From the NCBI RefSeq assembly GCF_024832785.1, contig NZ_CP116615.1, forward strand, positions 2,542,001-2,606,000: a DNA stretch of 64,000 nucleotides. The letters are read 5' to 3'. This document shows, piece after piece, positions 20,900-27,140 of the stretch. The stretch is from Fontisphaera persica. Its GTDB lineage: Bacteria; Verrucomicrobiota; Verrucomicrobiia; Limisphaerales; Fontisphaeraceae. Positions within the stretch are counted from its first letter, which is position 1. Each line of letters starts with the position of its first letter. The translations under genes and the position numbers were made by a program. The notes below the pieces were generated by a model. It had not been told where the DNA came from, searched no databases, and saw only the letters and a list, made by a program, of their open reading frames with translations.

Positions 20900-21287
20900 T
20901 AGCGCAGGCGTCCCGCCTGCGGGTTCACGGAGCCTCCCGGCTCCGTGATTGCAGAATTGCCGTCCTCAAAAAGACCCCCCTGTAAGCACCAATCCGCCCG
21001 TCATATTTTCCTGCATCGTAGCGCAGGCGTCGGCCCCATGTAGCGCAGGCGTCCTCGCCTGCGAGTTCACGGAGCCTCCCGGCTCCGTGATTGCAGAATT
21101 GCCGTCCTCAAAAAGACCCCCCTGTAAGCACCAATCCGCCCGTCATATTTTCCTGCATCGTAGCGCAGGCGTCGGCCCCATGTAGCGCAGGCGTCCCGCC
21201 TGCGGGTTCACGGAGCCTCCCGGCTCCGTGATTGCAGAATTGCCGTCCTCAAAAAGACCCCCCTGTAAGCACCAATCCGCCCGTCAT
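20900..21287. repeat. Three tandem copies of a 141/142-bp unit
   Basis: Units start at 20900, 21041 and 21183. Each begins tagcgcaggcgtc, continues through a G/C-rich palindrome, 'cggagcctcccggctccgtg' and 'gaattgccgtcctc', and ends near 'caatccgcccgtcat'. Units 1 and 2 are followed by the same 'attttcctgcatcgtagcgcaggcgtcggcccca' linker in shortened form; unit 2 has one extra base (tcctcgcc for tcccgcc), which explains the 142-base step. The copies are nearly identical, so the amplification is recent or kept uniform by conversion. Confidence 0.92.
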
Positions 21288-21521
21288 TCTTTGATTTGCC
21301 GTAATGTATGGCGTCCCGTCCCGCAGCGCGGGATAATGCCTGCGTCCCGCAGACCAAAGGGTGGCCAAGAGACCGCCGGCAGAATAATCCGACGCACGGT
21401 GACTATTTCCCTCTCCCTCTGGGAGAGGGCCAGGGTGAGGGGGCGTTTTCCCCCTTCGTTCCCTTCGTTTCCTTCTGTTCAAAATCCATGTCCATTCGTG
21501 TTCATTCGTGGTCTGTGTTTT

Positions 21522-22708
21522 AGGGAAAGCTGGGTAGATCATGACCCCGGTGGAGGGGTGGAGGCAAGTCGGGATGGTGGGGTTGGGAGAGGTTGAGGGG
21601 AGCCAGTGGATTAGGGCCCCGGCGAGGGCTGGGGCCTTGGCGTTGAGGATTTGGAGTGGGCTTTGCCATTCTTTGCCGCGGTTGGGGCGGACGAGGTTGA
21701 AGTACAGCCAGTAGGTGGTGATTTTGGCCCAAAAGTCTTGGGGGCTGGAGAAGGTTTCGCGGTCGAAGAATTCGTCTTCGACCAGGCGGTGGACGGTTTC
21801 GACGTCGCTTTGCCAGGTGTAGCGTTTGGGAGGGATGAAGCGGTGGTCGGAGCCGAGGGCGCGGACGGTGGCGGGGAGGCCTTGGTGGTGTTGGTTGACT
21901 TGGAATTCACTGCCGTTGTCGGTTTGCCAGACCAGGGTGGTGAGGTTGACGCCGTGGGCGGCGAGGTGGGCGGAGAGTTGTGTGGCCAGGAGGGTGGCGT
22001 AGGATTTGAGAGTTCGTCGGCGTAGCCGGTGAAGCAGGCGCCGGAGACTGGTTCGCGGACGGTGTATTGGAAGCGGGGAGGTGGAGGCGGTTCATTTGGG
22101 GCCAGTAATGGGGAATGTCCTGTAAATACTTGGTATCGGCGGAGAGTTGGGAGAAGAGTGGCCAGTTCCGTTTGAGGGCGCGGAGGAGTTTTTGGTGGCG
22201 GGTTTCTTTTGCGTGGGCGGAGGAGATGGTGTTGGCGGAGGACGCGGGCGATGGCGTTGTGGCTGCAGGGGAGGGCGAATTCGCGCTGGAGGCGTTCGGC
22301 GCCGAAGCCGGTTTGGTGGCGGAGTTTGACGATTTGGCCTTCGAGGCCGGAGGGGATACGGCGGGGGGAGCGTCGTGGGCGGCGGCTGTGTTCTTGGAGG
22401 GAGGAGGGCTTGCCGGGCACGTGGCGTCGGAGCCATTTACGGACGGTGTTGCGGGAACAGCCGAACTCGCGGACGGCGGCTTTGATGCCGTGGGTTTTGG
22501 CGAAGGCGACGAGTTTTTGTCGCAACCAATGGCGGTGGGTGCGCATACGGTACAATTCAAAGTAGGTGGTGTGCACGCCGGGAGGATAGCAGATGGGGCG
22601 CGCCGCTGCTGCACCTCCTCCGGAGGAGGTGCAGCAGCTCATCCTTGCGGCGTGCACTCAACACGTTGATCTTAACCACGGGGGTCATGATTCACCCAGT
22701 CTTTCCCA
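21522..22708 (-). mobile_element. Insertion sequence, DDE transposase type, 1187 bp, with 14-bp direct repeats
   Basis: The ends are inverted repeats: the left end reads AGGGAAAGCTGGGTAGATCA and continues TGACCCC; the right end read inward gives TGGGAAAGACTGGGTGAATC and continues ATGACCCC. Immediately outside both ends is the same 14-bp sequence GTGGTCTGTGTTTT (21508-21521 and 22709-22722), the form expected of a target-site duplication. Removing the element and one repeat rebuilds a left arm that matches the uninterrupted right arm near 26735-26760. The single transposase frame is broken (see the pseudogene entry), so this copy is not autonomous. Confidence 0.85.
21554..22546 (-). pseudogene. 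Transposase with retroviral-integrase-like DDE core, broken by three frameshifts
   Basis: The N-terminal part (from ATG 22546) has a helix-turn-helix: GIKAAVREFGCSRNTVRKWL, then TGFGAERLQREF and AIARVLRQHHLLRPRK. Near 22202-22212 the sense moves to another frame reading ALKRNWPLFSQLSADTKYLQ with DIPHYWPQM (first catalytic Asp in SADTKYL). Near 22074-22085, in a C/G run, it returns to the first frame (FQYTVREPVSGACFTGYADE). Near 22010-22018 it moves to the third frame: LKSYATLLATQLSAHL, WQTDNGSEFQV (second Asp), QSDVETVHRLVEDEFF (Glu) and YFNLVRPNRGKEW. No stop is met before the left IR. The core places it in the IS481/IS3-like rve superfamily; the exact family is uncertain. Confidence 0.82.
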
Positions 22709-22863
22709 GTGGTCTGTGTTTTCCATTTGACGCTCTCTGCCCCCTTTTCCCTCCACCCCATCGTCGTAGAGGGCCAAGGTGAGGGTCTGTAGCGCAGGCG
22801 TCCCGCCTGCGAGTTCACGGAGCCTCCCGGCTCCGTGATTTCTGAGTTGCCAAGGTCAAGCGG

Positions 22864-23356: not shown

Positions 23357-23971
23357 TCAAGCCGCTGCCGCCAGTCGCTTTCTCACAGCTTCAATTGGCA
23401 ATCGCTTCGCAGGCAAAGCCCCCTTTCGTTCGAGCAACGCATCGTCGAGAGTTTTCAACGCGTTGGGCTTGTCACCTTGAACGAATTGAATCGCGGCCAA
23501 CACTGTGAGGCGTCCTTCCGGGCCAAGGCCAAACCAGTCCGCTGGAGTTGTGGATTCCACCTTGCGGCGAATCTCAGCTAGCCTGGAATGTTTCTCGACG
23601 AACGGAAGCGCGATGTCCGTGAGTTCGCGCGTTACCGTGTCCCGCAACTGCTCCAAGTCGTCTCTCGTATGGAACTGCCATTCGGCGAACCTCTTGTTCT
23701 CGCGCAGCAGGTGTAGCGGCGTCATCACGGTGGGAACAATCGGCTTGGCCTCCCCTTGGAGAAACGGTTCAAGGGACAGGAAGCGCAGCCCAACGTTACA
23801 ACCAAAGCAACCCGGCCCTCGTGGGTCGAGCCTGCACGGAAACGAGAACAGAGCGGCAGCTTCGTTGACTGGCCGCGTGTAAATCAAGCGCTCCACTCGT
23901 TGAAAGCCAAGCGCTGAAACAACGCCCTGCACAAAGCCGTCGAGGAGCTGTTTTGCCGATTCGAGCGTCAT
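23357..23971 (-). CDS. Candidate immunity protein (DUF4304-like), overlaps the upstream toxin gene
   Basis: 204 aa from ATG 23971, which overlaps the stop of the preceding gene as ATGA, a sign of translational coupling. The protein is soluble with no signal peptide. Its N-terminal half (KQLLDGFVQGVVSALGFQRV, then FSFPCRL, CNVGLRFLS) recalls DUF4304-like proteins, which occur as immunity proteins in polymorphic toxin loci; this match is by eye and weak. The C-terminal part has a helical segment (GRLTVLAAIQFVQGDKPNAL) reminiscent of a short repeat protein. Position directly after a toxin-like gene is the main argument for the role. Confidence 0.5.
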   Translation of the reverse strand: MTLESAKQLLDGFVQGVVSALGFQRVERLIYTRPVNEAAALFSFPCRLDPRGPGCFGCNVGLRFLSLEPFLQGEAKPIVPTVMTPLHLLRENKRFAEWQFHTRDDLEQLRDTVTRELTDIALPFVEKHSRLAEIRRKVESTTPADWFGLGPEGRLTVLAAIQFVQGDKPNALKTLDDALLERKGALPAKRLPIEAVRKRLAAAA

Positions 23972-24657
23972 GGGGCGGGTGCTGGCCACAGGATTTTGAT
24001 GGTGTTGTTGATGGTAATTCCCGACTGCTCTCCCACTGACGTAGCACCATAGGTGTTGATCCATCGGTCAGCCGAGAACTGTTGGCGGGCAGCCCGATCA
24101 AACCGATTAAAAGCGCCAACTGAAGATTTGATTTCTACGCCTCCAATCAGGCCCTTTTGCGGGTTTTCCAGGATGACGGCCATCCGGCGAGCGCCAAACG
24201 GTGTATTGAACGTCACCTCGCGCCCCCTTACCAACATTCCGTTCGCTTGCGCTTGGGCTATGAAATCGTCAACAGCACGAACGCCTGCGATGCGATTGGC
24301 ATTCGCTGTTCCCTTTGCGGCAAGGAATCCTGCCTCGGCAACCGGTGGGGCACGTGGAGCACCCGCAGTTTGGATGGTGGAAACCGGGCACACGTCATAG
24401 GCAGGGATTGTCGCCACTGTTCCGCCCGGATAGCTCAACGCTTGCGTCGTAGCGGGCGGAAACTCCGGGTCGTAAACCATGCACGACCAGCAACAGTCAT
24501 CGTAGACAACTTTGGCGTTTACGGCCCGGCACTGCTCCCAGGCTGCGCTGGGCGGCATTCCTTGGTCCGGGACGCTGGACAGGGCAGGCAAAGCAAAGCC
24601 CAGCGTCTGGCTCAGGAGCCAGAGCGCCAACCATATCGTCTGCCTATGCCTTCTCAT
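23968..24657 (-). CDS. Small secreted toxin candidate with E-x-K nuclease-like motif
   Basis: 229 aa from ATG 24657, chosen because GAAAGGA lies at the right distance and a clear Sec signal follows (IWLALWLLSQTLGFALPALS). After a cysteine-containing linker (YDDCCWSCMVYDP) and a Pro/Ala-rich stretch, the C-terminal 110 residues form a compact domain: VDDFIAQAQANGMLVRGREV, FGARRMAVILENP, GGVEIKSSVG and FDRAARQQFSADRWINTYGA. The E-x-K in VEIKSS with the preceding strand is the kind of core seen in PD-(D/E)xK nuclease toxins. I do not recognise the family as a whole. It sits between a two-TM protein and the immunity candidate. Confidence 0.55.
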   Translation of the reverse strand: MRRHRQTIWLALWLLSQTLGFALPALSSVPDQGMPPSAAWEQCRAVNAKVVYDDCCWSCMVYDPEFPPATTQALSYPGGTVATIPAYDVCPVSTIQTAGAPRAPPVAEAGFLAAKGTANANRIAGVRAVDDFIAQAQANGMLVRGREVTFNTPFGARRMAVILENPQKGLIGGVEIKSSVGAFNRFDRAARQQFSADRWINTYGATSVGEQSGITINNTIKILWPAPAP

Positions 24658-24751
24658 TCTCATCCTTTCAAGCGCCGGTGGCCGACCTTCCTCCGGCGCG
24701 GCCTGAGCGGTGCAAAATTCTTTCACACCTCTTGGCGGGACAGCCGCGTTG

Positions 24752-25105
24752 CTATTCTCCGCCACGCTCTTTCAGACCACGAAGCCCGAGCGATTTCAAC
24801 AGCAGGGTTACGCCGAAATAGCCACACAACGCCAGCACTGCGCCGACCACTGCAAAGAAGATCAGCAGGAAGGCAGCGTAGGCGAAACTGGAATCGGACG
24901 GCGCTAGTGTTCTGTGTGAAGGATCAATCAGTCCGGCGAAAAACCGGCCAGTTTGTTCCACGCCGCCCAAGCCACTTTCCATGCAGCGACGGATAGGAGA
25001 TGTGGCCGGCAAAGCACCGAGCACCCAAGGAGCAAACCAATCAACCGCAGCTCCAGCCACCGCTCCAGCAGCGGCAATGAGCAGGATTTTTGAGGGCGTT
25101 TTCAT
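24752..25105 (-). CDS. Small two-TM membrane protein, possible immunity protein of the Rhs tip
   Basis: 117 aa from ATG 25105; a GTG at 25153 in the same frame would overlap the Rhs stop codon. The first hydrophobic segment is ILLIAAAGAVAGAAVDWFAP (TM or signal anchor) and the second is FLLIFFAVVGAVLALCGYFG near the C-terminus, with a soluble loop of about 50 residues between. No family recognised. Its place directly downstream of the Rhs C-terminal tip is where cognate immunity genes usually lie, and membrane immunity proteins are known for toxins that attack membranes. Confidence 0.55.
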   Translation of the reverse strand: MKTPSKILLIAAAGAVAGAAVDWFAPWVLGALPATSPIRRCMESGLGGVEQTGRFFAGLIDPSHRTLAPSDSSFAYAAFLLIFFAVVGAVLALCGYFGVTLLLKSLGLRGLKERGGE

Positions 25106-25142
25106 GTTTGAACGAGGGGCGAGTTGCGTCTGAGCACTCGGC

Positions 25143-26360
25143 TCATTCGACACCGTAGTATTTCTTGCACTTGCAGCCGCCGTTTGCCCGAACGTATTCG
25201 CGGAATTCGTTCAACGCTGAACTGCTCATTGAGTGGGTTAGCTGATAGCGTTTGTGGCCGCGTTCGTAATCCACCCAATCGCGAATATTCCCGCTCTTGT
25301 CAGCCACAAAGTGCAGAACCGAAAGCGTGGCACGTCCGTCAGGCGACCCCTTTGCGTCCAAGTCTGGGTCATCAGGAAAACCAGTCGTTCCTTTTGCCGG
25401 ACTCATGGCGTTGTGAACGTCCTTTAGACTGCTAAAGCTGCCAAGGAGACGTTTGTTGTGGTCGCCATGTGCCACCCAGTCCTGGTAAGGATGCAGTCCT
25501 GTTCCGAGTTGCTTCGCGGCTGCGCTCGGGTCGTCGTTTCCCTTGGACGTCGTGCAAAGGTCTTTCGCCTTCTGAAGGTGCTCTTTGTATTTTGTCTTCC
25601 GCGTGTCCTCGCTGCCACCCATGCTGAGGCTGCGGTCAAAGTGATACTGCGTGCCTGGCTCGGTGATGTAGGAAGTTGAGCCAAATTTCTCGTCAACGGC
25701 CTCGTCGGCATCAGCAACCGCTTGGGCGGCATCGGCTGGGTAGCCAGCTTTCAAGGCCCACCGCCGTGTGGCGTCCCGGTGAATCCTTGTATCCCACAAA
25801 CCAAGGTAGTCGTTGCCTCCAATTGGTTCGTTGCCCAGAAACGAGTAGCAGTTCATTCCGCCCATTTCTCCCATTGGGTCTCTACTTGGCCACCTGCCAG
25901 TGTGGGGATGGTAGTAACGGTGGCCGTAATAGTACAGGCCGGTTTCCCAGTCGTAGTATTTGGTGGAGAAGAGATGATGGAAGGTCTGGGCCAGGGGGCC
26001 GGTCGCGCGGAGGAGCTCGCCAAACGGGCCGTATTCGTATTGGGCAATCCATTGCTCTGTGGCCGCATTCGACGTGTGGAGGAATAATTTCCCTTCGGCG
26101 GGACGCCGAAGGGCACACGCCGGAGGCGTGTGCTCCCCGAGACCAATAACATCCGCCCACCCCCTATGAAAACCCCATGAAGCCGAAGCCGCCCCGTTCA
26201 GTGTTTCCGACAAATCCACTCCCCACACATGCGTGCGCACCGCACCCATTGTCCCATGCACTGCGGGACAATTCCCCTCTTCGACGATTGCCCACGCGCC
26301 TATGGCTTCATTCACCTGCATCTTGTGGCTGACCTCGAACCCAATATCCCCCAAAACCAC
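25143..26360 (-). CDS. Truncated Rhs core protein with C-terminal toxin-like tip
   Basis: 405 aa from GTG 26360 with GAAGGGGAG just upstream; Rhs proteins are normally above 1000 aa, so the barrel-forming repeats are missing. Residues 41-57 (VRTHVWGVDLSETLNGA) and 107-188 (YEYGPFGELL, YYDWETGLYYYGHRYYHPHT, GRWPSRDPMGEMGG, NEPIGGNDYLGL) are the Rhs-associated core. Residues 58-96 are encoded by an inserted palindromic repeat. The tip (189-405) is the variable toxin part: HFDRS near 240, then LHPYQDWVAHGDH (His290, Gln293, Asp294, His298), similar to the His-x3-Gln-Asp-x3-His pattern of zinc phospholipase C/S1-P1 nuclease folds, and a Cys-rich end. It may be an orphan module instead of a full effector. 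Confidence 0.7.
   Translation of the reverse strand: MVLGDIGFEVSHKMQVNEAIGAWAIVEEGNCPAVHGTMGAVRTHVWGVDLSETLNGAASASWGFHRGWADVIGLGEHTPPACALRRPAEGKLFLHTSNAATEQWIAQYEYGPFGELLRATGPLAQTFHHLFSTKYYDWETGLYYYGHRYYHPHTGRWPSRDPMGEMGGMNCYSFLGNEPIGGNDYLGLWDTRIHRDATRRWALKAGYPADAAQAVADADEAVDEKFGSTSYITEPGTQYHFDRSLSMGGSEDTRKTKYKEHLQKAKDLCTTSKGNDDPSAAAKQLGTGLHPYQDWVAHGDHNKRLLGSFSSLKDVHNAMSPAKGTTGFPDDPDLDAKGSPDGRATLSVLHFVADKSGNIRDWVDYERGHKRYQLTHSMSSSALNEFREYVRANGGCKCKKYYGVE
26078..26177 (-). repeat. Palindromic dispersed repeat inserted in frame in the rhs gene
   Basis: About 100 bp holding two adjacent perfect hairpins, cccttcggc-gggac-gccgaaggg (26091-26113) and cacacgcc-gga-ggcgtgtg (26114-26132). In the rhs frame it encodes SWGFHRGWADVIGLGEHTPP and ACALRRPAEG, which breaks the expected Rhs sequence after SETLNGA. 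The text resembles GC-rich dispersed repeats that I recall from verrucomicrobial genomes, but that recollection is unverified. Confidence 0.6.
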
Positions 26361-26580: not shown

Positions 26581-27140
26581 TCCGCTTGACCTTATCAGTT
26601 CTGCAATCACGGAGCCGGGAGGCTCCGTGAACCCGCAGGCGGGACGCCTGCGCTACGGGGAGACGCCTGCGCTACAGACCCTCACCTTGGCTTTCTGCTA
26701 CGATGGGGTGGAGGGAAAAGGGGGCAGAGCGCGTGAAGGGGGGAGATTAACCACGAATGAACACGAATGGACACAAATTTTGAACAGAAGGAAACGAAGG
26801 GAACGAAGAGGGAGAAGAGGCCCCTATCCCTAGCTCTCTCCCGGGGGAGAGGGGAACTGTTAATGGGCGTTGTGGGATTTTCGCCCGCTTTTGCTGGCTG
26901 CAGGCCAAGATGAAGTTGAGGGAACGGTAGCCGCAGAAAAATAATTATTCATCCCTTGTCCTTGGCCTGCGAGTTTCAAGCCGAATACCGCCCCACGGGA
27001 CGGGACGCCATACGTTATGGCTAATGCGAGATTGAGGTACGGATTGGTGCGTCCAGAGGCGTGTGTTTGACGACGGCAATTTTGCAATCACGGAGCCGGG
27101 AGGCTCCGTGAACCCGCAGGTGGGACGCCTGCGCTACATC
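26581..27140 (-). repeat. Right arm of the large imperfect inverted repeat
   Basis: Contains, in reverse complement and mirrored order, the modules of the left arm: tccgcttgacctt (26581), tagcgcagg block (26601-26655), 'gtggagggaaaagggggcag' (about 26710-26730), the 'aaccacgaatgaacacgaat' and 'gaacagaaggaaacgaaggg' block (26747-26810), a ctctcccgggggagagg block (about 26832-26850), and 'gggacgggacgccatac' to 'ggtgggacgcctgcgctac' (26990-27137). No gene is supported within it. A stretch at 26856-26985 has no left-arm counterpart that I can see. Confidence 0.78.

What the first reader, a model, noticed from the sequence alone, without database searches (positions are those of the whole stretch)
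24752..26360. Orphan Rhs tip with a His/Gln-Asp/His motif followed by a two-TM protein
The Rhs core is short and lacks all upstream repeats, but the 217-residue tip is intact and carries LHPYQDWVAHGDH, similar to the metal site of zinc phospholipase C and S1/P1-type nucleases. The next gene is a small two-TM protein, which fits a membrane immunity protein against a lipase or membrane-acting toxin.
Basis: partly seen in the sequence, partly recalled or inferred. Interest (0 to 1): 0.6.

Follow-up and report, generated by a model that had tools for sequence, protein, structure and literature searches.

The report
Rhs toxin tip, phospholipase-C-like zinc enzyme
A bacterial toxin fragment here belongs to a new family built like zinc phospholipase C, and it starts with the tryptophan those enzymes need as their first residue, exactly where the parent Rhs protein is expected to cut itself, so the cut may switch the enzyme on.

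Summary
The 405-codon minus-strand ORF (25143-26360) carries one Rhs core end and a 217-residue tip, and overlaps a two-TM gene. Relatives of the tip end full-length Rhs proteins elsewhere: one in a Lentisphaerae genome is about 2,225 aa, has a Sec signal peptide, and is followed by a 98-aa two-TM gene. AlphaFold models of this tip (pLDDT 87) and of a divergent relative (79) both align end to end with zinc phospholipase C and S1/P1 nucleases, above unrelated rows.

In known family enzymes the free N-terminal Trp binds the metal, and in Listeria PC-PLC one extra residue before it abolishes activity. Rhs self-cleavage would therefore double as zymogen activation. This is inferred, not shown.

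Weaker points: membrane or exported neighbours are usual for Rhs tips in this phylum, and the window's two-TM protein has no detectable homologue. Lipase versus nuclease is undecided. The window copy is a short cassette.

The parts
25143..26360 (-). Short orphan Rhs ORF (405 codons, GTG start) ending in the toxin tip
25797..26042 (-). Rhs-associated core end (82 residues, QYEYGPFG...NDYLGL) with both aspartates of the self-cleavage dyad (RDPMGE, Asp codon 25878-25880; DYLGL, Asp codon 25809-25811; 23 residues apart)
   Evidence: TIGR03696 69.4 bits; coordinates; RhsA D1324/D1346 are 22 apart (PMC8765631)
25794..25799 (-). Predicted cleavage point L|W: Leu codon 25797-25799, tip Trp1 codon 25794-25796
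   Evidence: cut after DPLGL with the new N-terminus at the next residue in P. laumondii Rhs1 (PMC8636562)
25146..25796 (-). 217-residue tip with phospholipase C / S1-P1 nuclease-like fold
   Evidence: AlphaFold pLDDT 86.8, pTM 0.87; VIA-align Z 8.4-11.5
25413..25796 (-). Predicted metal ligands W1, H6, D35, H52, H102, D106, H110, H128 (codons starting at 25794, 25779, 25692, 25641, 25491, 25479, 25467, 25413)
   Evidence: invariant or near-invariant; coordinates; order matches the SmNuc1 ligands (PMC11705217)
24752..25153 (-). Two-TM protein, candidate membrane immunity gene; overlaps the tip gene by 11 bases
   Evidence: no homologue detected
26085..26144 (-). In-frame stretch containing a palindromic repeat (GAGCACACGCCTCCGGCGTGTG) inside the Rhs leader; the same insertion lies in two other Rhs cassettes of the genome
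23968..24765 (-). Protein with a signal-like N-terminus and a C-terminal stretch that reads like an Rhs-type nuclease toxin; next gene in the overlapping run
   Evidence: no Pfam match above cut-off; resemblance by eye only
23357..23971 (-). 205-aa protein overlapping the previous gene; candidate immunity of the second pair
   Evidence: inference from position

Best explanation
The tip is a zinc hydrolase toxin of the phospholipase C / S1-P1 nuclease fold, in a new Rhs-tip family carried by Verrucomicrobiota and some Planctomycetota, Omnitrophota, spirochaetes and Firmicutes. In the full-length relative a Sec-exported Rhs shell carries it. The aspartyl self-protease of the Rhs core cuts after DxxGx. 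That cut creates a new N-terminal Trp1 whose amino and carbonyl groups complete the metal cluster with H6, D35, H52, H102, D106, H110 and H128. While the tip is still joined to the shell, Trp1 is not free and the enzyme should be inactive, so release and activation are one step. The most likely substrate is the head group of membrane phospholipids on the outer side of the cytoplasmic membrane, with a membrane-embedded immunity protein next door. The window copy is a short cassette of this toxin, more likely a reservoir or locally used module than a delivered one. Shown by computation: fold, ligand conservation, position of Trp1, the full-length relative. Inferred: cleavage here, metal binding, inactivity before cleavage, lipid substrate, immunity.
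For: Fold: AlphaFold pLDDT 86.8 / pTM 0.87 and 79.2 / 0.81 for a divergent relative. VIA-align Z 8.4-11.5 and 6.2-8.9 to PC-PLC, alpha-toxin, SmNuc1, S1 and P1, with the next unrelated rows at 3.6 and 5.3. Sequence: members of the family reach Zn_dep_PLPC 3.4e-4, Het-C 1.4e-4, DUF6765 3.4e-6, VWA7_N 7.5e-4. Ligands: W1, H6, D35, H52, H102, D106, H110, H128; spacings W-H +5, D-H +17, H-D +4 equal those of SmNuc1. Trp position: residue +1 after DxxGx is W in 18/20 and Y in 2/20 family tips, against W in 9/125 other Rhs tips. Seven of these were found through matches that left residue 1 out. In both models residue 1 aligns to residue 1 of PLC and P1, 21 of S1 and 27 of SmNuc1, the mature N-terminal Trp. 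Cleavage point: P. laumondii Rhs1 is cut after DPLGL and its toxin starts at the next residue. Need for a free Trp: PC-PLC W1 binds metal by its main chain, W1F is tolerated, and one added residue kills activity. Full-length Rhs with signal peptide, same tip and 98-aa two-TM gene in G177.
Against: The ninth ligand (H-x3-[DE] in PLC and S1) is absent at its usual spacing; conserved D142 or D147 may replace it. The last histidine spacing is D-x3-H, not D-x5-H (it is so in Het-C). Plain Foldseek gave no significant E-value. The window tip alone matches no Pfam model above cut-off. Membrane neighbours are common after all Rhs tips here. The window ORF lacks the Rhs shell, so self-cleavage of this copy is uncertain. 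Family members are related, so the Fisher p overstates independence.
Confidence: 0.6

Rival explanations
1. Same fold and metal site, but the tip is an S1/P1-type nuclease or nucleotidase rather than a lipase.
For: Residues 1 to about 204 align with SmNuc1 (Z 8.4 and 7.0), S1 and P1; the W1/H6 spacing is that of SmNuc1.
Against: For both models the highest Z values are to phospholipases; many of the neighbouring genes are multi-TM, though that is weak evidence.
Confidence: 0.3
2. Trp1 is conserved for another reason (packing of the tip in the shell, cleavage preference, or ancestry from secreted PLCs) and is not a metal ligand made by Rhs cleavage.
For: No coordinates of the metal site were available here, so the geometry is untested; +1 residues in Rhs proteins are varied, so nothing about cleavage forces a Trp there, nor forbids another role.
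Against: Other Rhs tips show no Trp preference at +1 (9/125), so shell or protease needs do not explain it; two models place residue 1 on the ligand Trp of all known relatives.
Confidence: 0.25
3. The window copy is a silent or decaying cassette, one of a family of short Rhs pieces kept as recombination stock; the mechanism applies only to full-length relatives.
For: No shell, GTG start, palindromic insertion in the leader; similar cassettes with the same leader lie elsewhere in the genome; another genome holds a long array of short Rhs-core ORFs.
Against: The tip frame is intact with all eight ligands, and the immunity-like gene overlaps it.
Confidence: 0.5

Closest known systems
Zinc-dependent phospholipase C (B. 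cereus and Listeria PC-PLC; alpha-toxin catalytic domain)
   Same: Helical fold over residues 1 to about 205, N-terminal Trp, ordered His/Asp ligands; Listeria PC-PLC is also inactive until residues before Trp1 are removed
   Different: Here the residues before Trp1 are an Rhs core with its own protease rather than a propeptide cut by another enzyme; D-x3-H spacing; ninth ligand not at the usual place
S1/P1 nucleases (S1, P1, SmNuc1)
   Same: Fold, W1-H6 spacing, D-H +17 and H-D +4 spacing, Trp freed by processing
   Different: Lower Z than to phospholipases; last-His spacing differs; activity untested
Tox-HET-C / Pfam Het-C
   Same: HxxxDxxxH motif and predicted PLC/S1-P1 kinship in polymorphic toxins (PMC3482391)
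   Different: Window tip does not reach the Het-C model; Zhang et al. discuss Het-C with PVC-type secretion, and the passages read do not describe an Rhs-linked N-terminal Trp
T6SS Rhs effectors with C-terminal self-cleavage (P. laumondii Rhs1, P. protegens RhsA)
   Same: Rhs core end with two Asp motifs 22-23 residues apart, cut after DxxGx
   Different: The full-length relative in G177 has a Sec-type signal peptide; in the window copy the shell is missing

Membership tests
Rhs / YD-repeat proteins | Rhs-associated core end (TIGR03696) above curated cut-off | tested here: met
   69.4 bits against 32.5
Rhs / YD-repeat proteins | Upstream YD-repeat shell | tested here: not met
   Window: stops upstream, no repeats. 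A relative in G177 has the full protein, about 2,225 aa
Phospholipase C / S1-P1 nuclease superfamily | Helical PLC/P1 fold over the whole domain | tested here: met
Phospholipase C / S1-P1 nuclease superfamily | Ordered metal ligands W, H, D, H, H, D, H, H | tested here: met
Phospholipase C / S1-P1 nuclease superfamily | Ninth ligand, Asp/Glu four residues after the last His | tested here: inconclusive
   Not at that spacing; conserved D142 and D147 are candidates
Phospholipase C / S1-P1 nuclease superfamily | Free N-terminal Trp on the metal | not testable with these tools
   Position fits the expected cleavage point; needs N-terminal sequencing and a structure
Pfam Zn_dep_PLPC / Het-C / DUF6765 / VWA7_N | Curated score cut-off reached by the window tip | tested here: not met
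   Only DUF6765 at E 0.24, 11.4 bits against 26.6; relatives reach 3e-6 to 1e-3
Tox-HET-C | HxxxDxxxH motif | tested here: met
   LHPYQDWVAHG in the window, invariant; motif from PMC3482391
Two-TM immunity family of this tip | Homologous two-TM gene next to the tip in different genomes | tested here: inconclusive
   Homology significant among L024, L027, L007 (E 2e-10 to 9e-5); window protein finds none

The most novel reading that the evidence does not exclude
Rhs self-cleavage is itself the chemical activation step of the cargo: it makes the N-terminal Trp that a trinuclear zinc enzyme needs, so the toxin is a built-in zymogen that cannot act until the shell's protease fires. This would be shared by diverse tips across several phyla.
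Probability: 0.6. Interest if true: 0.78.

Novelty: new variant of a known kind. Interest (0 to 1): 0.62.

Why it matters
Rhs self-cleavage is known to free toxins from their cage. Here it would also complete the active site, which would explain how a producer can make such an enzyme without harming itself before release, and it gives a direct test: cleavage position, zinc content and activity with and without residues before Trp1. It also puts a probably membrane-active zinc enzyme class among Sec-exported Rhs toxins of little-studied Verrucomicrobiota.

Tried and rejected
A genome-contig scan with the single tip found nothing; with alignment A1 it found 13 loci. No relatives in viral contigs or plasmids. 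PADLOC, NCBIfam and PDB sequence searches gave no tip relative. Plain Foldseek E-values were not significant, best 0.28. 'A membrane neighbour proves a membrane toxin' was tested against 101 other Rhs tips and dropped. The two-TM proteins as one homologous family: only three of nine link by sequence. Two apparent motif hits, L082 and L039 (184 aa), were set aside as chance matches because they lack the ordered ligand pattern. The bracketing of cassettes by inverted repeat clusters looked like a mobile unit, but most brackets elsewhere hold no clear gene.

Full report
Observation. Window 25143-26360 (-) is a 405-codon frame with a GTG start; residues 110-188 match the Rhs-associated core at 69.4 bits (cut-off 32.5), and the rest is a 217-residue tip. 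Upstream frames are closed. The two-TM ORF 24752-25153 overlaps the tip gene by 11 bases. The host is a single-contig genome of 4.73 Mb in the same phylum as the Lentisphaerae and Verrucomicrobia records found below.

Relatives. In 387 genomes of the phylum the tip alone finds six others, and an alignment of five finds 13 others. A genome-contig scan adds Phycisphaerae, Omnitrophota, Treponema and Firmicutes records. From its ATG with a Sec-type signal peptide this is about 2,225 aa, followed 27 bases later by a 98-aa two-TM gene.

Fold. Members of the family reach Zn_dep_PLPC, Het-C, DUF6765 and VWA7_N in Pfam with E-values down to 3e-6, though the window tip itself does not pass a cut-off. 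The AlphaFold model of the window tip has pLDDT 86.8 and pTM 0.87. VIA-align puts it on PC-PLC and alpha-toxin chains at Z 9.5-11.5 and on SmNuc1 at 8.4, with the next row at 3.6. A divergent tip from another genus of the same class, modelled separately (pLDDT 79.2), gives Z 8.2-8.9 to phospholipases and 6.2-7.0 to S1, P1 and SmNuc1, with the next row at 5.3. The second set is weaker, and for helical proteins middling Z must be read with care, but the same superfamily fills the top of both lists.

Metal site. W1, H6, D35, H52, H102, D106, H110 and H128 are invariant or nearly so over 15 sequences. SmNuc1 uses Trp27, His32, Asp71, His88, His141, Asp145, His151, His175 and Asp179 (PMC11705217): the first steps (W-H +5, D-H +17, H-D +4) are the same. 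The D-x3-H step is that of Het-C, which Zhang et al. already linked to PLC and S1-P1 (PMC3482391). The ninth ligand is not at its usual place.

The first residue. Every closely related tip begins with Trp directly after the fifth residue of the DxxGx motif. P. laumondii Rhs1 is cut after DPLGL, with N-terminal sequencing placing the toxin start at the next residue (PMC8636562); P. protegens RhsA is cut at the same place (PMC8765631). A ligand pattern that ignores residue 1 picks 18 tips, 16 Trp and 2 Tyr. Seven of the relatives were found through matches that left residue 1 out, so the search did not create the result, though the members are kin and the p value (about 1e-13) should not be taken as if they were independent. 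In both models residue 1 is the first aligned residue and falls on residue 1 of PLC and P1, Trp21 of S1 and Trp27 of SmNuc1, the residues that become N-terminal after processing and hold a metal by their main chain. In Listeria PC-PLC, Trp1 replacements other than Phe reduce activity, one added residue in front abolishes it, and the proenzyme is inactive (PMC10576769).

Mechanism. Putting these together, the most likely story is a zymogen: joined to the Rhs core the tip cannot place Trp1 on the metal; the core's aspartyl protease cuts after DxxGx, frees Trp1 and so both releases and activates the enzyme. Steps shown: fold, ligands, position. Steps inferred: cut in this family, zinc, inactivity before the cut, lipid substrate. 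I found no paper in the open library describing this link; that is a limited search.

Neighbour gene. The window and six relatives have a two-TM hairpin next (L021, L022, L024, L027, L030, L007), L031 has two TM plus a soluble part, several have four or five TM, and others have a lipoprotein or secreted protein. A control on unrelated Rhs tips of the phylum shows that exported or membrane neighbours are the rule (73/101 against 15/17, p 0.23), with a modest excess of multi-TM genes here (9/17 against 22/101, p 0.014). TM segments were called with a simple hydropathy window, not a trained predictor. Sequence homology links only L024, L027 and L007, and the window protein finds no convincing match in 377 genomes. 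So membrane immunity is plausible, not established.

The window copy. It belongs to a set of short Rhs cassettes in this genome with a common leader, two of which carry the same palindromic insertion; some other cassettes carry signal-peptide-like starts (L084, L085). Whether the window copy is exported or cut is unknown. A second overlapping pair (23357-24765) follows.

Verdict.

Noticed in passing
window 20916-22833 (-) and 26612-27120 (+): A palindromic repeat (GAGCCGGGAGGCTCCGTGAACCCGCAGG) has 86 copies in the genome, 6 in the window; clusters with mixed strands always run minus-left, plus-right, and three of them bracket Rhs cassettes, while most others examined bracket no clear gene.
   Followed up: partly
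window 23357-24765 (-): A protein with a signal-like start and nuclease-like C-terminus and an overlapping 205-aa gene follow the two-TM gene; no relative of the first in 240 genomes of the phylum.
   Followed up: partly
L064-L068 (G117:C1 about 482-533 kb, 583-596 kb, 3456-3468 kb): One genome of the phylum carries a long array of short orphan Rhs tips, each with its own next gene, many of them exported or membrane proteins.
   Followed up: partly
L024 (292-codon frame ending at 2757, +), L084 and L085: Short proteins with a signal-peptide-like start joined straight to an Rhs core end and a tip: possible Sec-exported mini-Rhs toxins.
   Followed up: no
window 21611-22657 (-): Transposase-like ORF whose C-terminal half looks frame-shifted; by eye only.
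   Followed up: no
L006 and L026 (downstream of the tip), L016-L020: Ankyrin-repeat lipoprotein in place of the two-TM gene next to the same tip family, and a different secreted-looking protein next to the L016-L020 tips: the immunity slot is polymorphic.
   Followed up: no
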